A stretch of 8,582 nucleotides of DNA from Candidatus Mcinerneyibacteriota bacterium (lineage in GTDB: Bacteria; AUK180; JAQVHJ01), in contig DAOVMD010000107.1 of NCBI GenBank assembly GCA_030630935.1, positions 1 to 8,582 on the forward strand, written 5' to 3'. Shown one piece after another: positions 36 to 8,582 of the stretch. The translations under genes were made by a program, and so were the position numbers. The notes below the pieces were generated by a model, which did not search any database, had not been told where the DNA came from, and was given only the letters and a program-made list of their open reading frames with translations. Within the stretch, counting starts at the first letter, position 1, and the number at the start of each line of letters is the position of its first letter.

Positions 36-62
36 AACATTTTAACCATTCAACATTTTAAC
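36..62. repeat. Short direct repeat at the end of the bactofilin-like gene
   Basis: aacattttaac occurs at 36-46 and again at 52-62, a 16-nt period; the second copy overlaps the stop codon of the gene. A looser third match (aacagttttgac, 69-80) lies inside the coding end. It could be a binding site, slippage debris or chance in AT-rich DNA. No terminator hairpin is visible between the stop codon and the window edge. Confidence 0.3.
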
Positions 63-1071
63 TCGTTTTAACAGTTTTGACATAATTATTTCTACCGAAG
101 CCGGTAATAACGATTGCGCCGAGTATAAAGCTTTCCATTATTAAAATAGCGATGAATCCGGCAGTAGGGATTAAATTAAAAAGGGTGAGTACGATATAGC
201 CGAGGATTATTTTAATTGTCCAATGCGGTTTTTTTAGTTTGAGTAGTTTTACGAATTTCCCTCCGATCACCGAAGTTAAAATTGCATATGCATAAAAAGA
301 AATGATTAATAAGATTATAAATAAAGATATCCCGATTGGGAGCAGGACAATTGAGATTGCAGAAACAAACATCATACTAGCAAAAACCAGCATCAAGAGT
401 AGGCCAATAGTCAGCATCAGGAAAGGCGATGTTTTTACAGCTTCTTTTATTCTAAATATTGATTTTCTAAGATAATAAATAATTATTAGGATCATCCCTA
501 ATTTTACCAGGAACCATATCGCAGAATAGAGCAGTTTAAATTCAGGAGCACCTTTAAAGATAAATGTAAATAACGGTTCTAACAAGTTAATCAGTGGCGA
601 TTTCTTTATGATTACATGACCGTTAATTATGGCCTTTTCTTCTTTCTCAAAAGTCTTCCCTATAAATGAGATATTCCCATTCACGACAGAATTATTTTTC
701 AGGATAAGTTCACCGCCGAAGATATTTATATCCCCGTTCACCTTACCTTCCACAATCACAACCCCATAGACACTCTTGATTGTACCATTCAGCGTCCCTT
801 TCACAATTAATACAGAATTAATTAAGGAGAGGTCTTCATATAGGATTTCATGCTCGCCAATTATTATTCTATTACCAAACCCGATATGTTTCTTTCCCGG
901 TGTAGTGAAGTGCAGACCTGATTTATCCTTAGGTTTTGTAACCGGTGTCTCTTTGATCTGGCTTTGTTTCTCTTCAATAGTATAAAATAAATCATCTTTT
1001 GCAGCATAAGTAACTTGACTAAAGGTACTTAATAGAATTATTAATAGAATTAGAATACTTAATCTCTTCAT
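58..1071 (-). CDS. Secreted, membrane-anchored bactofilin-like (polymer-forming) protein
   Basis: This 337-residue protein begins with a signal peptide (about residues 1-23, ending near TYAA). Residues 85-155 show a beta-helix-like repeat: Asn-Gly turns at 95-96, 112-113, 131-132 and 150-151, each followed one residue later by Ile or Val, 17-19 residues apart, with alternating hydrophobic strands between. That pattern is typical of bactofilin/polymer-forming domains. The C-terminal half is membrane-embedded, with hydrophobic spans near 180-201, 216-265 (probably two) and 284-323 (probably two). Ordinary bactofilins are cytoplasmic; the signal peptide puts this beta-helix outside the cytoplasmic membrane (inference). 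It is the third gene of the sigma/anti-sigma operon, 11 nt after the anti-sigma stop, and its Shine-Dalgarno is poor, so translation is probably coupled to the upstream gene. It may be a target or sensor partner of the sigma system. The gene call is firm; the bactofilin-like fold is likely; the role is unknown. Confidence 0.9.
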   Translation of the reverse strand: MKRLSILILLIILLSTFSQVTYAAKDDLFYTIEEKQSQIKETPVTKPKDKSGLHFTTPGKKHIGFGNRIIIGEHEILYEDLSLINSVLIVKGTLNGTIKSVYGVVIVEGKVNGDINIFGGELILKNNSVVNGNISFIGKTFEKEEKAIINGHVIIKKSPLINLLEPLFTFIFKGAPEFKLLYSAIWFLVKLGMILIIIYYLRKSIFRIKEAVKTSPFLMLTIGLLLMLVFASMMFVSAISIVLLPIGISLFIILLIISFYAYAILTSVIGGKFVKLLKLKKPHWTIKIILGYIVLTLFNLIPTAGFIAILIMESFILGAIVITGFGRNNYVKTVKTS

Positions 1072-1082
1072 GTATTTTCAGC

Positions 1083-1637
1083 TCAACTCATCAATTGATG
1101 TATAGCACTGAATCTATCTTTCAGTTTCAGGAATAAAATAAATATTACTGCGATACCGCCCCAGATAATTCCGTTGAGCAACTGACCGCTTTTGAATCCG
1201 GAGTTTAAAACTAATATTACATTGAATATATTGATTAGATAGTTAAGAAAAACCTGGAACTCTAACTTCATTTCAGTTAAAAAATTCGTAACGGGCACAG
1301 TGTTAACTCCGGCTAAGGTCAATAAATTCAGCAATGGAATAAAGAATACCACGATGAATGCAATTGCTGCTGCAATACTGATTTTTACAGTTCTTCTTCT
1401 TAATACTCTTACTTTCTCGTTCTTAACAAATGCTAATGTTTTCTCAGCAAAGTTCACAGGTAGTTCAGGTACTTCAATCGACTCTAACCCATCGAAGATA
1501 AACTGAAACTGTTTCATCCGTTTCTCACAGTTTGAACAGATTTCTAAATGTTTCTCGAGTTGGGCACGCGCCTTTCCAATAATCACCCCATCAAGGTAAT
1601 CTTGAATCTCGCGGTCCGTAATACAATGCTTTCTCAT
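1083..1637 (-). CDS. Membrane-bound zinc-finger (zf-HC2) anti-sigma factor
   Basis: This is a 184-residue protein. The N-terminal 45 residues carry the zinc anti-sigma signature: His30, Cys34 and Cys37 in HxxxCxxC spacing (HLEICSNC), with His4/Cys5 near the N-terminus as the probable fourth ligand. Known members of this family bind their ECF sigma factor in the cytoplasm and release it on an envelope signal. A charged linker (about 38-82) leads to a first membrane span at about 84-102. Further hydrophobic segments lie near 129-146 and 153-171, so it has up to three spans rather than the common single span, and only a small extracytoplasmic part. The ATG is preceded by AAAGGAG at good spacing, and the gene starts 14 nt after the sigma stop, which supports a cognate pair. 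The assignment rests on both motif and context. Confidence 0.92.
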   Translation of the reverse strand: MRKHCITDREIQDYLDGVIIGKARAQLEKHLEICSNCEKRMKQFQFIFDGLESIEVPELPVNFAEKTLAFVKNEKVRVLRRRTVKISIAAAIAFIVVFFIPLLNLLTLAGVNTVPVTNFLTEMKLEFQVFLNYLINIFNVILVLNSGFKSGQLLNGIIWGGIAVIFILFLKLKDRFSAIHQLMS

Positions 1638-1651
1638 TATTTCTCCTTTAA

Positions 1652-2230
1652 TTAATCTTCTTTAAAAAATACATCTTTTAAAAGTTTCCTTGCTCTATGA
1701 AGGTATGTCATGACAGTACCAATCGGTAACTTTAACACTGCGGCAATCTCTTTATAGCTCATCTCTTCATAGTGCCTTAGTATAATAATCTCTCTATAAG
1801 TCTCCGGGAGATGCTTGATACCTTCCATCAATTTCTCCTTTTGTTCATTCTCTTCCCAGATAACTTCCGGGTTATAAGAATTATCCGGGATCGGGAGTTC
1901 ACTGAACTGATCATCTAAATCCTTGAACGTAGTTTCATAGGAGATTGTCTTCAGTTTCTTCTTCCTCAGGAAATCGATACTGTGATTTGTTGCAATCCTG
2001 ATAACCCATGTAGAAAATCTATATACCATATCAAATTTCAAAAGGTTCAAATAAACTTTTGCAAAGATCTCTTGTGATAGATCGTATGAAGTCTCAGCAT
2101 TATAACAATGCTTATACGCGATTGAGTATACTTTTCTCTGGTACCTTTCAATGATCTCTTTAAATGCTTCGTCATCATTTTTGATACTCTTTTCAACAAG
2201 TTCTTTATCCGTTAAACTAGTATAATCCAC
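1652..2230 (-). CDS. ECF-family RNA polymerase sigma factor
   Basis: This 192-residue protein has the two-domain ECF layout. Sigma region 2 spans about residues 24-95, with the core-binding motif DLSQEIFAKVY at 50-60 and the -10 recognition stretch FSTWVIRIATNHSIDFLRK at 72-90. A variable acidic linker covers about 100-130. Sigma region 4 spans about 135-188, with the helix-turn-helix SYKEIAAVLKLPIGTVMTYL at 158-177 followed by HRARKLLK. The length is normal for the family. The start is GTG at 2228-2230: the next methionine is only at residue 68, inside region 2, and a GGAG lies 10 nt upstream of the GTG. It is the first gene of a three-gene operon with its anti-sigma factor. Target promoters cannot be read from the protein; autoregulation is usual for the family. 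Confidence 0.96.
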   Translation of the reverse strand: MDYTSLTDKELVEKSIKNDDEAFKEIIERYQRKVYSIAYKHCYNAETSYDLSQEIFAKVYLNLLKFDMVYRFSTWVIRIATNHSIDFLRKKKLKTISYETTFKDLDDQFSELPIPDNSYNPEVIWEENEQKEKLMEGIKHLPETYREIIILRHYEEMSYKEIAAVLKLPIGTVMTYLHRARKLLKDVFFKED

Positions 2231-2290: not shown

Positions 2291-2322
2291 AAGAAAAATC
2301 GCCCCTGAAAAACAGGGGCGAT
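2291..2322 (-). terminator. Intrinsic terminator of the four-gene membrane operon
   Basis: A perfect 10-bp stem (ATCGCCCCTG with CAGGGGCGAT, 2298-2307 and 2313-2322) closes a 5-nt loop. On the minus strand it is followed directly by a T-rich run (TTTTTCTTTT). It lies 35 nt past the last stop codon of the operon and ahead of the sigma gene, so it separates the two transcription units. Confidence 0.92.
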
Positions 2323-2357
2323 ATAAAATTTTCGACTAAAACTACTTCACTGAATTG

Positions 2358-2996
2358 CTACCCGCCAAACAGTACCTTCGGCAGGTCCTGGAACAGGAAG
2401 ACAATTCGACCTATCAACAGTGAGATTCGACCCATAACTGTCAAGCCAAAAGAGGCCCCGAATCCAATCATCAGGAAGTAAATCCCGACCTTTGCCACTC
2501 CACCAACAACTCCTTTATGTTTCCACGAGAAGAAGAAGTAGACGATTGCACTAAATACTCCCACTATCAATAGTATATTGGAAAAGGTCTCTCCAACAGT
2601 AAGACCATATCTAAAGAGTGGAATAATCGTTCCCTGGACCTGTTTAAATATTGATGCCTGCATACCTGGACCAAGACCGAAACCGGCCATTATTCCCATA
2701 AGAATTGCAATAGGAATTCTAATTAACCATCTTGTTTTAGGATGGACAAAACCAAAATATAACATTCCAATTGCAGTCGGGATCAATAACTCGTATCTTG
2801 CTTCTTTAAATAACGGATCGAATAAAAACTGTTTAAATCCAAGATGCCATAACTGACCTAAACCATATCCTACAGATAATCCTATCATAATATGTTCTGC
2901 AGACCTGTAAAACGGATTATCCTTATACAGGAATGAAAAGATTGCTAAAGTCGCAAGTGCGGCTAAAATTGTTCCAAAAACTGACCAAAAAGCCAT
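2358..2996 (-). CDS. Six-span integral membrane protein of the DUF6754 operon, function unknown
   Basis: This 212-residue hydrophobic protein has about six predicted spans (near residues 4-24, 33-52, 68-84, 90-110, 135-157 and 166-188). Charge distribution favours both ends outside: the positive loops at 25-32, 85-89 and 158-161 would all face the cytoplasm. Two stretches look conserved in character: KDNPFYRSAEHIMIGLSVGYG after the first span (25-45), and the Gly-rich end of the last span running into an amphipathic tail (GASFGLTVMGRISLLIGRI, 180-198). Loops 104-110 and 162-167 are also Gly-rich. No enzyme motif or named family is recognised. The ATG has GGAGGT 6 nt upstream and lies 14 nt after the preceding stop. 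As the last gene before the terminator it is inferred to be a membrane subunit of the same complex. Confidence 0.93.
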   Translation of the reverse strand: MAFWSVFGTILAALATLAIFSFLYKDNPFYRSAEHIMIGLSVGYGLGQLWHLGFKQFLFDPLFKEARYELLIPTAIGMLYFGFVHPKTRWLIRIPIAILMGIMAGFGLGPGMQASIFKQVQGTIIPLFRYGLTVGETFSNILLIVGVFSAIVYFFFSWKHKGVVGGVAKVGIYFLMIGFGASFGLTVMGRISLLIGRIVFLFQDLPKVLFGG

Positions 2997-3010
2997 ATCA
3001 TTACCTCCGG

Positions 3011-3838
3011 TTATTTAGTTTGTTTTTTTTCAAGTAAATAAGCGATATTTCCAACTACAATTAAAATAATAATCATAATATGTGCCCAATTCTGAGAAGG
3101 GATTCCACGTGTACCCAACCCTTTTATGTTGATTAACTTCTCATAATCAGCAGCACCTTTCATACCGTTTAATAAACCTATTAACTGACCGGTCTGTAAA
3201 TATGGATAATAATCAGCGGCCATAACAGCTGTAACACCTGCAGATACTGGTCTATTATACATTGTGTTTACAAAATAGATATAGGTTTGAACAGTTCCGC
3301 CGGCTGCTAATACGATTACGATGGAGACATCGTCATAATTTTTTACTTCCTGGAATAATTCCATATTCTTCAAACTTTCACCGCGGTAATCTGCCTGGAC
3401 CGTTTTAACAATATCCTTACCCATTCCAATAATCATCTGGGCGAATCCAACTTTATACCCGAAGTAAACCCAATCTTTACCTTGGACCTTATCATATTCC
3501 TTTGCAGCTGAAGACACAACTTCCTGACCTAAACCGGAACCTGATGGCCAGGCAAACGCCATTCCTATTACATTAATATCCTTAGAGAATGCATGCCTGC
3601 AAATTGCGCGACCCATCGGGTTCAACTCTGCAAGGGAATCGGGTGAATAATCAAAACAAACCATAATAGTTGACCCTTCAGGTAACGCATCGATAAAATC
3701 ATATAACTCCTGAACAGGACGTGCCGGAACAATTGGCGGATTAGACGGGATAAAAAGCGGTACAGAAACAACAATTGCAACCATGAGGAATATCCAGCGC
3801 CTGTCTAAATTTACTATATTAAGAAAAAACTTTTTCAT
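3011..3838 (-). CDS. Doubly anchored protein with extracytoplasmic alpha/beta domain, function unknown
   Basis: This is a 275-residue protein. A positively charged N-terminus (MKKFFLNIVNLDRRW) precedes a membrane span at about 15-30. Residues 35-248 form a soluble domain predicted to lie outside the membrane, and a second span at about 252-269 is followed by a basic tail (EKKQTK) inside. The domain alternates hydrophobic strands and helices in an alpha/beta manner, for example STIMVCFDYSPDS (56-68), DINVIGMAFAWPSGSGLG (87-104), VSIVIVLAAGGTVQ (171-184) and GQLIGLLNGMKGAADYE (217-233). Gly-rich turns follow several strands, as in nucleotide- or ligand-binding folds, but I see no specific catalytic motif. 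The ATG has a GGAGG that nearly abuts the upstream stop, with an 11-nt intergenic gap. Several segments match the pattern of the DUF6754-type domain encoded by the first gene of the operon. Function unknown. Confidence 0.94.
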   Translation of the reverse strand: MKKFFLNIVNLDRRWIFLMVAIVVSVPLFIPSNPPIVPARPVQELYDFIDALPEGSTIMVCFDYSPDSLAELNPMGRAICRHAFSKDINVIGMAFAWPSGSGLGQEVVSSAAKEYDKVQGKDWVYFGYKVGFAQMIIGMGKDIVKTVQADYRGESLKNMELFQEVKNYDDVSIVIVLAAGGTVQTYIYFVNTMYNRPVSAGVTAVMAADYYPYLQTGQLIGLLNGMKGAADYEKLINIKGLGTRGIPSQNWAHIMIIILIVVGNIAYLLEKKQTK

Positions 3839-3849
3839 TATCGTCCCTC

Positions 3850-4515
3850 CTACTCTGAACCGCCGAGCCAGGAGCGCTCGATCCCTAAGATTATCTTCAA
3901 ACTCGTCGCCATCATTCCAAGTGCAACACCTAACATGATTGCTCTCTTTGTGGCTGTATTCGGAACATCAAGTATCCACTGAGTCCACTTTGGAAAATCC
4001 AGGAATCCTTGAGTAATACTGCGTATAGTCTCACCTAATGGAACTCGTCCCAGCATAACAACAACTGCTGCAAGCAATAGACATGTCGCTTCGACACTTC
4101 TTGCCTTAAATGCCCTGAATGCTGCAGAAGTAATATAGAATGCAAGTAATGAAAACATGGTTGCTTGAAGTGGAACTTGAAGATTCATGAATATCCAATC
4201 ATAGATCGAGCCCTGCTGAATACCTCCATTAAACTTCTCAGGAAGAAGAATTCCAACAATAAACATTACACCAATTCCTGAAAGTGTCAAGATACTATAT
4301 TGCCAATTATCTACTTTTCTCTTAATTTTATTAACATGCAGATGAATGAGTGAATATAAACCTATTACAAATGCAAATAAACTAATAACCTTAATCCATT
4401 CAACCATAATCTGACGTTGAAGAATTTCTTCTGAAATATAGTGAGGTACGAAGTATGAAATAAAGAATACAACACCTCCAATAAATACTATCGCTAATGG
4501 TAATGAGCGCTTCAT
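3850..4515 (-). CDS. Six-span integral membrane protein of the DUF6754 operon, function unknown
   Basis: This 221-residue protein has about six predicted spans (near residues 4-24, 40-60, 73-93, 109-132, 141-158 and 190-211). The positive-inside rule is well satisfied with both ends in the cytoplasm: loop 61-69 (VNKIKRKVD) and loop 133-139 (FRAFKAR) are basic. Outside loops are short, except residues 159-189, which contain GRVPLGETIRS and a Trp/Pro stretch (FPKWTQWILDVP). The C-terminus ends in GIERSWLGGSE, which looks like a conserved tail. No transporter or enzyme signature is recognised. The ATG is preceded by GGGAGGT at normal spacing and follows the stop of the large first gene by 18 nt. 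It is inferred to be an integral subunit of the same complex as its neighbours. Confidence 0.93.
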   Translation of the reverse strand: MKRSLPLAIVFIGGVVFFISYFVPHYISEEILQRQIMVEWIKVISLFAFVIGLYSLIHLHVNKIKRKVDNWQYSILTLSGIGVMFIVGILLPEKFNGGIQQGSIYDWIFMNLQVPLQATMFSLLAFYITSAAFRAFKARSVEATCLLLAAVVVMLGRVPLGETIRSITQGFLDFPKWTQWILDVPNTATKRAIMLGVALGMMATSLKIILGIERSWLGGSE

Positions 4516-4533
4516 AATATAAGTACCTCCCGC

Positions 4534-7500
4534 CTATTTAGGAACATTTTCAAAGAAATTAATAAAACCTTCCTGCCAAATACCAAATGTATAAAGCAGG
4601 ATTCCAACTGCAAGTAAAATCATTATAATTAATTTTCCTGTATCCTGTGCTTTGAGAGTTCCTAATAACAACGGGTCTTTTGACATGTATGCACTCGCTG
4701 CATAAAGTTCCTCACCTATCAATGTATAATCACAGGCCGTAATAAAGAATGGGATCTGAGTAACCGCATCAGTTCCGGCGATCTGGATTGCTCCAATTGA
4801 ATTACCGGTCTCTGCCATAATCAATGATTCAGCAAAAAACATTCCCATAAAGAATACGGTTGCAGGTTTTTCCCGGACCATAATACCGTTGACTCCTGCG
4901 GCATAAGCAAACTGCGCCTGAGTAAGGAAGAATACACTATCCTCATTGAATGCATCAGGTTTCCCAACATCAATGTATGCCTCCCGAACAACCTCTTTCT
5001 GAATAGTATATACAATCGGGTCGTAGGAAGGTACAATCAACGGTGTTTCATACAAAGCAATCTTCCTCGCTACCTGACCAAGAATGTTGATTGATGCAAG
5101 TGTCGCAATATCCTGGATACCCGATAACCCCGAAATATAGAGAACGGGACGCCCCATCTCAGTTGCTCTACCTACCGCTTCATCAACCGCTGCTAAACCG
5201 GCAATCGGTCGAACAAAGATTTCCTTACCGGATTTCGCCATATTAAAGAAAAATAAGAAAATTATAATATAACATGAGACCCCAAAGAAAAGCCTGAATA
5301 AAGGCGGTTTAATCCATTCCGGATGACCTTTATATGGTCCGAAAACGGGGGTATATGAAAATTGCTTTGAATTATCAACGGTCTTCATTGAAACTAAATA
5401 GCTGTCAAGGCCTAAACCTGATTGTTTAAATGAACCGAAACTCCCTACCAGGATTATCTCTGCACTACTGTAATAACCAAGATGTAGTGAATAATCAAGG
5501 GTTATCATCGCAACAATATTTTCGTATGTTAATTTTTCCTTCATCTTCTCAAGCGTAACCAGGTCAGATTCAAACGATGGTTTATATCCTTGTACCATTA
5601 TAAATCTTTGAGTATAATCGAATAAGCTATTTAAATCCTTATCATTAATATACTTCTTCAGATCAGCTCTATATTCCGGTAATTTCAAAGATGCATCATA
5701 CTGTTTCTGTGCGGCTGTCTTCTCTTCTTCGATTAAACCTTCTTTTTCTAATGCGGATTTTAATTTCTCCTGATACTTACTGTAATTCTCCTTTTCAAGT
5801 TCTGATAAGGCTTGTTTTTTATCTAAATCAGGATCACCAAAGGCTCGGGACGCTGTTATTATTGTACTATAGACTGTATCGGGTGTAACATCACTTACGA
5901 TGTTATATCTCTTTATTAAATAATCATCAAGGTCCTTTAAACAATCCCTGATAGGCTGCTGGGCTTCTTCGATAGTTAATGTTTCTGCTTTTAATTTGGT
6001 CGCGTGAACACGATATTTCTTCAGAATTTTAAATGTTTCGTTTAAGGTGGCTATATAGATCTTATAAGATTCATGTTTGTCTTCGGTGGTTTTTAAAGTA
6101 TCTTTTAAATGTTTACCAAATTCACTTACTTTAACTTTTGAAAAAACATCCCAGGATAAAAATCCATAAATCATATAGTTCTTTTCAATACTCTTTTTGA
6201 ATGATTTTAAATCTCGAATATCTTTTTTCTTCTGCTCTTCAGATAATCTCGCTGAAATCTCCTTGAACGTCTTATCCTTCCAATTAAAACCTTCAAATGG
6301 ATTATATTTCTGATTCGTCTTCTCAATTGCCGTGATAAAAGGTTTTGTGTCGATTGGTGCTTTGGTCTCCAACTCGTTAATTGTAGCAGTCTTTAAGTTT
6401 ATATCTAAATTATGGATCTTCTTTGAAGATACAACTTTTATATGTGATTTTAAAGCATCAAATAAAATTTTGTTCGCTTCAATTACTTCGTAAGGAAAAA
6501 ATAATTCCTGGAAAGTCTTATCTTTATACTCTTTATATTTCCCGTCAAATAAGGGCTCAATCTTTTTAAATTCTTTTATGTTTCTTTTTAATACTCGAAT
6601 ACCCTCCCTTTGATACGAAAGTTGACCTTTGAAAAAATTCCGCGTTCCCACTATGTCCTTCCCAATCTTAAGTGCTTGAAGTTTTCTTCCCAGAACCGGA
6701 TCATGACTTCTTGGATCTCCAACATAAAGGAAATCAAAGGAAAAAATAGTATATTCCTTTAATAGTCCCCTGTAAAATTTATCTTTTAAAGTGGGTTTAA
6801 ATTTACCAATAGTATCAATGATCTCTCCCATTGAATATACTCGGAAAGCATTGAATAAGAGTTCCTTCTGATTACGAAGAGTCTCATAATAAACAAATTC
6901 ATTACTTAACTTTGTTTTATCCGTTTCAGATAAATTCTTATCTTTTAACTTCTTTCTTAAATCGGTGATCGTCTTGTCAAGATCCATACTATCAAGTTTC
7001 TTTAAACCAGTCTCAATATCATCTGTCTCCATCTTTTTCTGAATATCTAAAAGTAATGGAACTGAGCGAATTAAATTTAAATCTTTATTCCCTGAATCTA
7101 AACCAATCTCTCTTCCCAGTAATACTAGAAGATTATGAACCTTCTCCGGACGATCACAATTAAATTTTTTCGCTAACTTGCGACCCTGTTTAATATTCTT
7201 GAGGAAATTCTTCTGAATCTGAGAATAAGTAACAAAAAATTCACCTAAATCAGTCTCAAAAATATCCAGTTGATTTAATATTGTTTTAGATTGTGAATAA
7301 AATTTCTTATTTATCTTATTCTGTTTTAGAACAATCTTAAGCTCTACAATTTTTGCAAGGATTTCATCGATCTCCTCGACAGTAAAAATATTCCTGGAAT
7401 TATTTAAATTTACTAACTTAACCTTTAAAGTAGGAATATAATTTAAAAAATCAATAAATACATCGTATTTATCCCCAAAAATCTCCTTCTCGCTCTTAAA

Positions 7501-8016
7501 ACGAGTAATTAATTTCAACATCCTATTAATATGCTTGATAAATTTCTCGTTCTCAAGTCTTTCAAAGACTATATCATATTTGAAAATATCCCGTTCACTA
7601 TCCCTGGGATTTGAAGGGTCAGTCCAGTCATCAGGTGAATTATCAAACAAACCTTTAATCGCCTGACCATCATCAAACTGAACATTGGTAATCCTAAAAT
7701 TAAACGCCGGTCTGGGAGGTTTATCTACTTTTATTTCAGGAACTACCGGCTCTTCTGTTTTAACTTCCTCAGTTTCAGCTGGAATCTTAACTTCCTTCGG
7801 CTCCTCATCCTTCTTCAAGTTCTTACGATCTGTGGACTCCTCCTTGGCTTCAGGTTTCTTTTCCGACTTTGTATCAGATTTTACTGGTTCTTCCTTCTTA
7901 GATTCCTTCTTATCCTCGGTAACACCTTCTTTCGTACCTGCAATAACAGTCGACGGAACTAAGAAAAGGAAAAAGCATAATACTAAAAACAATGCAATGA
8001 AGTGTTGTCTCTTCAT
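4534..8016 (-). CDS. Large envelope protein: FN3-like region, long helical insert, C-terminal DUF6754-type membrane domain
   Basis: This is a 1160-residue protein. Residues 1-26 are a signal peptide. Residues 28-101 are a Lys/Glu/Pro-rich, probably disordered linker. Residues 103-153 look like the opening strands of a fibronectin type III domain (FDDGQAIKGLFDNSPDD, then FKYDIVFER). About 155-835 are mostly charged, predicted helical sequence with no family I recognise. Residues 836-900 resume a strand-like pattern (DSYLVSMKTVDNSKQFSYTP) before a membrane span at 905-927. Residues 930-1125 match what I remember of DUF6754: RPIAGLAAVDEAVGRATEMG (936-955), TPLIVPSYDP (991-1000), GVNGIMVREKP (1041-1051), and IAGTDAVTQIP through GEELYAASAYMSKDP (1079-1115). 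Basic residues at 928-936 place this domain in the cytoplasm, and a final span at 1128-1147 leaves the C-terminus outside. The start ATG has AGGAG 5 nt upstream and a consensus promoter further up. It leads a four-gene operon. The DUF6754 name is from memory; the biochemical role is unknown. Confidence 0.95.
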   Translation of the reverse strand: MKRQHFIALFLVLCFFLFLVPSTVIAGTKEGVTEDKKESKKEEPVKSDTKSEKKPEAKEESTDRKNLKKDEEPKEVKIPAETEEVKTEEPVVPEIKVDKPPRPAFNFRITNVQFDDGQAIKGLFDNSPDDWTDPSNPRDSERDIFKYDIVFERLENEKFIKHINRMLKLITRFKSEKEIFGDKYDVFIDFLNYIPTLKVKLVNLNNSRNIFTVEEIDEILAKIVELKIVLKQNKINKKFYSQSKTILNQLDIFETDLGEFFVTYSQIQKNFLKNIKQGRKLAKKFNCDRPEKVHNLLVLLGREIGLDSGNKDLNLIRSVPLLLDIQKKMETDDIETGLKKLDSMDLDKTITDLRKKLKDKNLSETDKTKLSNEFVYYETLRNQKELLFNAFRVYSMGEIIDTIGKFKPTLKDKFYRGLLKEYTIFSFDFLYVGDPRSHDPVLGRKLQALKIGKDIVGTRNFFKGQLSYQREGIRVLKRNIKEFKKIEPLFDGKYKEYKDKTFQELFFPYEVIEANKILFDALKSHIKVVSSKKIHNLDINLKTATINELETKAPIDTKPFITAIEKTNQKYNPFEGFNWKDKTFKEISARLSEEQKKKDIRDLKSFKKSIEKNYMIYGFLSWDVFSKVKVSEFGKHLKDTLKTTEDKHESYKIYIATLNETFKILKKYRVHATKLKAETLTIEEAQQPIRDCLKDLDDYLIKRYNIVSDVTPDTVYSTIITASRAFGDPDLDKKQALSELEKENYSKYQEKLKSALEKEGLIEEEKTAAQKQYDASLKLPEYRADLKKYINDKDLNSLFDYTQRFIMVQGYKPSFESDLVTLEKMKEKLTYENIVAMITLDYSLHLGYYSSAEIILVGSFGSFKQSGLGLDSYLVSMKTVDNSKQFSYTPVFGPYKGHPEWIKPPLFRLFFGVSCYIIIFLFFFNMAKSGKEIFVRPIAGLAAVDEAVGRATEMGRPVLYISGLSGIQDIATLASINILGQVARKIALYETPLIVPSYDPIVYTIQKEVVREAYIDVGKPDAFNEDSVFFLTQAQFAYAAGVNGIMVREKPATVFFMGMFFAESLIMAETGNSIGAIQIAGTDAVTQIPFFITACDYTLIGEELYAASAYMSKDPLLLGTLKAQDTGKLIIMILLAVGILLYTFGIWQEGFINFFENVPK

Positions 8017-8066
8017 CTCGTCTCCTAATTTTTTATATTATTATAGATTATTAAAAATTATTTTAA

Positions 8067-8095
8067 ATTATATCATAAATAATATTTAATGTCAA
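8067..8095 (-). promoter_or_regulatory. Consensus sigma70 promoter of the four-gene membrane operon
   Basis: On the minus strand, TTGACA (8095-8090) and TATAAT (8072-8067) are separated by exactly 17 nt. The -10 is preceded by TGA, giving an extended -10 element (TGATATAAT). All twelve core positions match the housekeeping consensus. AT tracts upstream of the -35 (about 8097-8112) could act as an UP element. Transcription should start near 8060, giving an AT-rich leader of about 44 nt before the AGGAG and ATG. No operator-like palindrome overlaps it, so strong constitutive expression is the simplest reading. Confidence 0.88.
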
Positions 8096-8122
8096 CGAAA
8101 AAATGTTAATTTGAGGAAATAT

Positions 8123-8245
8123 GGCTTTCCAAAAGCCTGTTATTTGTCATTATCCCGACGCGTCGGGATGACTTCCGTTACACTCCAGCCACACGCTAAA
8201 GCAAAGTGTGGCAATCTCAAAACATCGCTTTGCTCTGCAAGTAAA
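8123..8245. repeat. Palindrome-rich, probably dispersed intergenic repeat
   Basis: This stretch contains three inverted repeats in close succession: a 6-bp stem with a 3-nt loop (ggcttt/aaagcc, 8123-8137), a perfect 18-bp palindrome atcccgacgcgtcgggat (8152-8169), extended by gtcat/atgac with a small bulge, and a 7-bp stem gccacac/gtgtggc (8188-8212). It is clearly GC-richer than the flanking AT-rich leader. Read in frame on the minus strand it gives a peptide (VLRLPHFALACGWSVTEV...) of a type I associate with spurious ORFs from dispersed repeats in uncultured bacterial genomes. Copy number cannot be judged from one window. Confidence 0.55.
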
Positions 8246-8300
8246 AATGAAGAGTGAATAATGAACAAGTAAGAATTATCTTGCATTATGTATGAAAATG

Positions 8301-8470
8301 CAGTAGGGGCTACCGAGTCGAATCGAGCGAAGCGAGATCTAGCTTGCGTCCCCGCCCTGACCATAAGAAATAAAACACCCATACGATAAAAAGATAAAAA
8401 CAAGAGAAATAAATCCAACCGTAGAGAGGTCAGGAACCACGCGCTTCGCTTGGGTTCGGGATAAACCCCG
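8301..8470. repeat. Second repeat-like block with inverted 'agcgaagcg' copies
   Basis: This block holds agcgaagcg at 8326-8334 and its exact reverse complement cgcttcgct at 8442-8450. It also has short GC stems: taggggc (8304-8310) against gtccccgccct (8348-8358), and cggg/cccg around 8457-8470. An AT-rich segment (about 8362-8420) separates the two halves. The base composition changes sharply within the spacer, which suggests inserted mosaic repeats rather than a gene. No transposase or clear target-site duplication is visible. Confidence 0.4.
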
Positions 8471-8512
8471 GACACAGAAAAAAACAAGAAGAAAAACCAA
8501 AATATTTTTCAT
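8339..8512 (-). CDS. Doubtful 57-codon ORF with a signal-peptide-like start, possible gene remnant
   Basis: The ATG at 8512-8510 has an AGGA 8 nt upstream and opens a 57-codon frame ending at TAG (8341-8339). The first residues, MKNILVFLLVFFC, look like a secretion signal, but the following sequence (RGLSRTQAKRVVPDLSTV...) runs straight into the repeat-like block and shows no domain. It may be the 5' stub of a secreted-protein gene interrupted by repeats, or simple coincidence in AT-rich DNA. Another frame over the same region (8140-8487) would have to start at TTG and is less credible. Confidence 0.2.
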   Translation of the reverse strand: MKNILVFLLVFFCVRGLSRTQAKRVVPDLSTVGFISLVFIFLSYGCFISYGQGGDAS

Positions 8513-8582
8513 CGCGATGTCCTATGAACATACAGGACGTCTGCTCTACGCTTGTCGCAGTACTTTAATCTATAAAACAACT

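What the first reader, a model, noticed from the sequence alone, without database searches (positions are those of the whole stretch)
2291..8095. Self-contained four-gene membrane operon of unknown function built around a DUF6754-type protein
A consensus promoter, four genes 11-18 nt apart and a strong terminator delimit one transcription unit. All four products are membrane proteins: two six-span proteins, one doubly anchored extracytoplasmic domain, and one giant protein with a large outside region and a cytoplasmic conserved domain. No transporter, secretion or enzyme signature is visible in any of them. The composition suggests a stable trans-envelope complex that has not been described, to my knowledge.
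Basis: partly seen in the sequence, partly recalled or inferred. Interest (0 to 1): 0.68.

Follow-up and report, generated by a model that had tools for sequence, protein, structure and literature searches.

The report
Widespread uncharacterised ATPase-linked membrane complex
The four membrane-protein genes are one part of a conserved set of about seven genes, found in dozens of little-known bacterial lineages, that almost always travels with a dedicated ATPase and appears to form an undescribed membrane-spanning machine.

Summary
Four minus-strand genes (D 1160 aa, C 221, B 275, A 212) lie 11-18 nt apart between a perfect promoter and a strong terminator. It is not a local oddity: 122 complete D-C-B-A cassettes were found in the same order in more than ten phyla, often in tandem. 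In 193 genomes D, C and B occur in the same 54 (one weak extra B). A three-gene module, P (small, membrane-associated), M (ASKHA-type ATPase of the MutL/GlmL superfamily) and S (barrel-sandwich-hybrid protein), commonly sits directly upstream, and long-form M co-occurs with D in 99 of 386 genomes (D alone 6, M alone 2; p about 6e-82). M is not the glutamate-mutase reactivase its family name suggests: only 1 of 54 D-bearing genomes has that enzyme. Genomes with three or more D genes mostly carry one M (97 D, 35 M in total), so several membrane modules seem to share one ATPase module. D normally carries an outside Fn3 domain and a cytoplasmic domain with a DHS-like Rossmann fold; B has the same architecture with its domain outside. 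No paper in the library mentions it. The system is well supported; its mechanism and cargo are inferred or unknown.

The parts
8067..8095 (-). sigma-70 type promoter TTGACA-17-TATAAT with extended -10, upstream of D
   Evidence: 12/12; chance expectation 0.009 per window
4534..8016 (-). gene D, 1160 aa: signal peptide, large mostly helical extracytoplasmic region, TM, cytoplasmic DUF6754 domain, TM
5308..7938 (-). extracytoplasmic part of D (about residues 27-903): charged linker then helical, lineage-specific insert; about 700 aa of it found only in the sister genome G001; corresponds in position to the Fn3 domain of ordinary relatives
   Evidence: low AlphaFold confidence; Fn3 halves not significant in this protein
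4579..5289 (-). DUF6754 domain (residues 910-1146), predicted DHS-like Rossmann fold between two TM helices (about 904-928 and 1115-1143)
   Evidence: E 2e-112; model mostly above pLDDT 90 here; Sir2 Z 11.6, ACDS epsilon Z 9.8
3850..4515 (-). gene C, 221 aa, about six TM spans, N-terminus inside by the positive-inside rule
   Evidence: same genomes as D
3011..3838 (-). gene B, 275 aa: TM, extracytoplasmic alpha/beta domain, TM
   Evidence: AlphaFold pLDDT 95.6; same genomes as D plus one weak
3131..3730 (-). alpha/beta domain of B (residues about 37-236), DHS-like: nearest ACDS epsilon subunit Z 9.4, transhydrogenase domain III Z 8.4
2358..2996 (-). gene A, 212 aa, about six TM spans
2298..2322 (-). 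intrinsic terminator after A
   Evidence: equivalent hairpin in G001
1652..2230 (-). ECF sigma factor, conserved neighbour in the class (not part of the core system elsewhere)
1083..1637 (-). zf-HC2 anti-sigma factor
58..1071 (-). membrane protein with weak bactofilin match, third gene of the sigma/anti-sigma set

Best explanation
The operon encodes the membrane module (D, C, B, A) of an undescribed ATPase-coupled complex. SHOWN: the four genes form one inherited cassette, and the system also includes an ASKHA-fold ATPase (M, MutL/GlmL superfamily), a barrel-sandwich-hybrid adaptor-like protein (S) and a small hydrophobic-hairpin protein (P), usually encoded once per genome and often directly upstream in the order P-M-S-D-C-B-A. 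INFERRED: A and C form the membrane core. D places a DHS-like domain on the cytoplasmic face and an Fn3 or lineage-specific domain outside. B places a similar alpha/beta domain outside. Nucleotide-dependent conformational changes of M, relayed by S to D's cytoplasmic domain, drive or gate movement of the outer domains or a substrate path through A/C. Several DCBA modules with different outer domains share one P-M-S module, as substrate modules share one energising module in group II ECF transporters or TonB systems. The cargo is unknown; transport of, or mechanical work on, an envelope component is my first guess. In this genome the window cassette carries an enlarged helical outer domain, and a second cassette on contig C404 is followed by a fused M-S gene.
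For: 122 complete DCBA cassettes, median gaps 11, -0.5 and -1 nt, in many candidate phyla. D, C and B confined to the same 54 of 193 genomes, plus one weak B. Long-type M with D in 99 of 386 genomes, D only 6, M only 2; 34 genomes have M within 10 kb of D, all on the same strand. P-M-S-D-C-B-A order in unrelated genomes; P-M-S also in the sister genome and class relatives. M keeps both phosphate motifs and the GSGG adenosine motif of ASKHA ATPases. 26 genomes with three or more D genes hold 97 D but 35 M; 17 of them have exactly one M. Window cassette and the second own cassette are distant paralogues. Fn3 in canonical D: 27 of 45 match PF00041, best 1.7e-7, and the profile finds fibronectin and titin Fn3 chains. 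Predicted folds. Own C404 cassette followed by M-S.
Against: No interface was predicted or measured. S and a separate M were not found in the window's own genome, which is only 80% complete; the only M there is cut by a contig end. Five D-bearing genomes show no M at all. Three D-bearing lineages (G066, G207, G337) show no Omp85, so a link to an outer membrane is not general. ATPase activity of M is untested. The opposite topologies of B and D rest on the positive-inside rule.
Confidence: 0.55

Rival explanations
1. Sensor: DCBA is an envelope-state sensor that feeds the neighbouring ECF sigma/anti-sigma pair, with D's outer domain detecting stress and the signal passing to the anti-sigma factor.
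For: Sigma, anti-sigma and a bactofilin-like protein follow A on the same strand in all class relatives with flanking sequence for this cassette type, only about 35 nt downstream in the sister family.
Against: The regulators are absent from the cassette's neighbourhood in almost all other phyla, and a terminator separates them in the window and in G001. The universal partners are M, S and P.
Confidence: 0.12
2. Chaperone/reactivase: M-S services a cofactor-dependent enzyme, as GlmL services glutamate mutase, and DCBA is the membrane-bound client.
For: M belongs to the PF13941 superfamily, whose MutL/GlmL members are chaperones involved in reactivating glutamate mutase (PMC4682846). B and D have conserved polar residues near predicted strand ends of Rossmann-like folds.
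Against: No cofactor-binding family is recognisable in D, C, B or A. Glutamate mutase E is in only 1 of 54 D-bearing genomes, and there beside a separate short GlmL.
Confidence: 0.15
3. Redox or ion-pumping complex related in layout to Rnf/Nqr: S stands for the RnfC/NqrA barrel-sandwich domain, A and C for the six-span pair, B and D for nucleotide-binding subunits.
For: Weak RnfC_N and NqrA_N matches in S; DHS-like (NAD/FAD type) nearest folds of B and D; Rex-like gene next to the Cloacimonadota cassettes.
Against: No conserved cysteines in A or C, no flavin or FeS family in any part, no match of A or C to Rnf/Nqr subunits, and A and C are not detectably related to each other. B's domain is outside, where NAD is not expected.
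Confidence: 0.1
4. Mere syntenic inheritance: the genes are co-inherited in related lineages without a shared function.
For: Most hits are in uncultured lineages whose deep relationships are unresolved.
Against: Tandem duplication of whole cassettes, relocation to unrelated neighbourhoods with order kept, and joint presence/absence across about 300 genera.
Confidence: 0.03

Closest known systems
DUF6754 (PF20539)
   Same: D's C-terminal domain is a full member (374.9 bits against a cut-off of 27).
   Different: Only a domain of unknown function. The library holds no paper naming it; the operon, partners, Fn3 domain and TM-flanked fold come from this work.
MutL/GlmL family (PF13941, methylaspartate mutase accessory protein)
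   Same: M (in relatives, and fused in the own genome) shares the ASKHA ATPase domain.
   Different: M is about 600-690 aa instead of 455-475, scores below the GlmL equivalog cut-off (242 against 475), and occurs without glutamate mutase.
Group II ECF transporters / TonB-ExbB-ExbD
   Same: Works-like only: several membrane modules apparently share one energising module.
   Different: No ABC ATPase, S-component, TonB or ExbB family in the cassette; different folds.
Rnf/Nqr complexes
   Same: Six-span membrane subunits and a cytoplasmic barrel-sandwich-hybrid protein.
   Different: No conserved cysteine or flavin site, no sequence match, and an ASKHA ATPase is present.
PilMNOP / GspL-type assemblies
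   Same: An actin-like (ASKHA) cytoplasmic protein combined with membrane proteins (from general knowledge).
   Different: No Pfam match to any Pil or Gsp family; membrane subunits are polytopic.

Membership tests
DUF6754 (PF20539) | domain match above the curated cut-off | tested here: met
   residues 910-1146, 374.9 bits, cut-off 27
Conserved D-C-B-A system | same four families, same order and strand, found together | tested here: met
   122 full cassettes; same 54 genomes
Conserved D-C-B-A system | M/S partner module present in the same genome | tested here: inconclusive
   own genome (80% complete) has one M-S homologue cut by a contig end beside its second cassette; separate S not found; P-M-S present in sister genome G001
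GlmL glutamate-mutase reactivase (for partner M) | PF13941 ASKHA domain | tested here: met
   E 1.7e-131
GlmL glutamate-mutase reactivase (for partner M) | GlmL equivalog score above cut-off | tested here: not met
   242.4 bits against 475
GlmL glutamate-mutase reactivase (for partner M) | glutamate mutase in the same genome | tested here: not met
   strong PF06368 matches in 3 of 193 genomes, only one D-bearing, beside a separate short GlmL
Rnf/Nqr | A or C matching Rnf/Nqr six-span subunits; conserved cysteines | tested here: not met
   no family match; no invariant or nearly invariant Cys
DHS-like NAD/FAD-binding fold (D core, B) | fold similarity to Sir2, transhydrogenase dIII, ACDS epsilon | tested here: inconclusive
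   Z 8.4-11.6, a range where a common arrangement cannot be excluded; no sequence relative in the PDB
Fn3 domain in D | PF00041 match in canonical D | tested here: met
   27 of 45, best 1.7e-7
Fn3 domain in D | Fn3 halves recognisable in the window's own D | tested here: not met
   3.9 bits; shuffles reach 5.7
ABC/ECF transporter | ABC ATPase or known permease family in the cassette | tested here: not met
   none; only a sub-threshold Mem_trans match in C (E 0.016)
Anti-phage defence system | PADLOC model match | tested here: not met
   none at E 0.01

The most novel reading that the evidence does not exclude
A new class of energised envelope machine: an ASKHA (actin/Hsp70-fold) ATPase, wrongly filed as a glutamate-mutase reactivase, powers interchangeable four-protein membrane modules in which two similarly built TM-alpha/beta-TM subunits (D and B) face opposite sides of the membrane. 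It is widespread in candidate phyla and absent from all 14 well-known control genomes.
Probability: 0.4. Interest if true: 0.88.

Novelty: categorically new. Interest (0 to 1): 0.72.

Why it matters
A quarter of a broad sample of bacterial genomes (105 of 386) carries this set, up to six copies each, yet none of the 14 well-known control genomes does, and three of its four membrane families have no name at all. It gives a concrete, testable partner list (M, S, P with D, C, B, A), corrects a likely misannotation of many MutL/GlmL-like genes, and offers a route to a basic envelope function of candidate phyla that model organisms cannot reveal.

Tried and rejected
Homology between D's core and B: same order of helices and strands between two TM helices and overlapping nearest folds, but profile-profile scores do not exceed block-shuffled controls (20.2 against a maximum of 24.6), so it is not claimed. 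Homology of A and C: none. Split Fn3 in the window's D: not significant, though split halves are significant in Cloacimonadota and in L042. Glutamate-mutase reactivation: rejected for M. Phage or plasmid origin: no match. Defence system: none. RNA element in the window: none. Lipoate ligase and TonB-dependent receptors downstream in a few lineages: seen, too few independent cases to use. Omp85 as a discriminator: uninformative because nearly the whole sample is positive. PDB sequence relatives of A, B, C, D, M, S: none convincing. Literature under DUF6754, PF20539 and GlmL/ASKHA terms: nothing relevant; the library lacks most subscription papers and bioRxiv preprints.

Full report
WHAT IS THERE. 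The window lies on a 471-contig, 3.16-Mb genome that is 80% complete. On the minus strand it holds D (8016..4534, 1160 aa), C (4515..3850, 221 aa), B (3838..3011, 275 aa) and A (2996..2358, 212 aa), separated by 18, 11 and 14 nt. A perfect extended -10 promoter (8095..8067) precedes D and a strong hairpin terminator (2322..2298) follows A. One perfect promoter was seen against 0.009 expected, and the sister genome has an equivalent terminator. Only D matches a family: DUF6754, residues 910-1146. A, B and C match nothing in Pfam or NCBIfam above cut-off.

CONSERVATION OF THE CASSETTE. Searching for D's domain gave 576 confirmed relatives in public genomes, of which 80 loci were kept. They lie in named candidate phyla including WOR-3/Stahlbacteria, Cloacimonadota, Poribacteria, Fermentibacterota, Latescibacterota, Zixibacteria, Edwardsbacteria, Coatesbacteria, Eisenbacteria and Armatimonadota. 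Gene calling over about 140 loci found 122 complete D-C-B-A cassettes in the same order, median gaps 11, -0.5 and -1 nt, frequently two or three in tandem. Incomplete cases are mostly contig ends or overlapping gene calls; the clearest exceptions are second D genes in Cloacimonadota with no C, B or A beside them. D occurs in 105 of 386 sampled genomes and 0 of 14 controls. In the 193-genome subset B occurs in 55 and C in 54 genomes, the same 54 as D plus one weak B in G099.

THE MISSING HALF. Clustering of neighbouring genes showed a recurrent pair directly upstream of D: a MutL-like protein of about 610 aa and a protein of about 375 aa. The first (M) is an ASKHA ATPase-fold protein (PF13941, E 1.7e-131) with conserved ATDCGSTTTK, DIGGATTD and GSGG motifs. 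It falls far below the GlmL equivalog cut-off. The second (S) has weak barrel-sandwich matches (RnfC_N; NqrA_N in a fused form) and an invariant-rich middle region. A third small protein (P) with a hydrophobic hairpin precedes M. The full order P-M-S-D-C-B-A recurs in many unrelated genomes. Over 386 genomes, long-type M and D are found together in 99, D alone in 6, M alone in 2 and neither in 279 (Fisher p about 6e-82); in 34 genomes they lie within 10 kb, always on the same strand. Real glutamate mutase (PF06368) is strongly present in 3 of 193 genomes. Two of these lack D, and the third (G124) carries it beside a separate short GlmL. M is therefore the partner of D, not of glutamate mutase.

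OWN GENOME. A second cassette lies on contig C404 and is followed by a fused M-S gene cut by the contig end. Its D is a distant paralogue of the window's D. Separate S was not found in the own genome, but the sister genome and five class relatives have P-M-S, so its absence here may be due to incompleteness.

DOMAIN ANATOMY. Ordinary D proteins are about 360-430 aa: signal peptide, Fn3 domain (27 of 45 match PF00041, best 1.7e-7; PDB fibronectin and titin chains), TM, DUF6754, TM. In Cloacimonadota and L042 Fn3 halves are separated by long inserts. In the window's D the corresponding region is about 870 aa and largely helical, of which about 700 aa were searched and found only in the sister genome; Fn3 halves there are not statistically detectable. 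AlphaFold models the DUF6754 part mostly above pLDDT 90 and B at pLDDT 95.6. Both read TM - alpha/beta with six strands - TM, and both have DHS-like nearest folds: Sir2 Z 11.6 and ACDS epsilon Z 9.8 for D; ACDS epsilon Z 9.4 and transhydrogenase domain III Z 8.4 for B. These Z values can reflect a common arrangement, and sequence profiles do not prove kinship. By the positive-inside rule D's domain is cytoplasmic and B's is outside.

MODULARITY. Twenty-six genomes with three or more D genes hold 97 D and only 35 M; 17 of them have exactly one M. I infer that several DCBA modules, with different outer domains, share one P-M-S module.

MECHANISM. Shown: gene content, order, co-occurrence, domain assignments and predicted folds. 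Inferred: complex formation, ATP use by M, relay through S and D, and a transport or mechanical role. I put the shared-ATPase membrane machine first (0.55). A cofactor-reactivation role, an envelope sensor tied to the sigma factor and an Rnf/Nqr-like redox pump are rivals with specific evidence against each. The sensor idea draws on the sigma/anti-sigma/bactofilin-like genes that follow A throughout the class, but these are not neighbours in other phyla.

NOVELTY. No paper in the open library names DUF6754 or PF20539, and searches for the M family in this context found nothing. The library excludes bioRxiv preprints and most subscription journals, so priority cannot be fully judged. I call the system categorically new because no known system shares its set of parts, while noting that M's domain family and DUF6754 are catalogued.

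Noticed in passing
window 8120-8582: The stretch upstream of the promoter is a patchwork of dispersed repeats: 54 matches in the own genome; a roughly 75-bp piece (about 8143-8218) recurs more than 35 times at about 86-96% identity. Its single strand folds better than shuffles (z -3.0), like REP-type elements.
   Followed up: partly
window 58-2230: ECF sigma / zf-HC2 anti-sigma / bactofilin-like membrane protein directly after the cassette in class relatives with flanking sequence; only about 35 nt from A in the sister family, but behind a terminator in the window and G001.
   Followed up: partly
L090, L091, L110, L113, L131: Cloacimonadota have a second long D (about 920-1000 aa) after the cassette without its own C, B or A; in four loci a Rex-like gene follows.
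   Followed up: no
L165, L166 (G066, G337): Divergent cassettes in lineages without detectable Omp85, with B enlarged to 706 and 1508 aa and a 726-736 aa M placed after A.
   Followed up: no
L071, L075, L141, L142, L145: A lipoate-protein ligase-like gene lies just downstream of the cassette in several lineages, sometimes followed by a TonB-dependent-receptor-like gene.
   Followed up: partly
L058, L061, L182, L187, L188: M and S occur as one fused protein of about 860-1050 aa, often as a second copy besides the separate M and S genes.
   Followed up: partly
G099:C20:39791-40543: A partial B-like match (E 6e-27) in a genome without D or C, the only sign of B outside the cassette.
   Followed up: no
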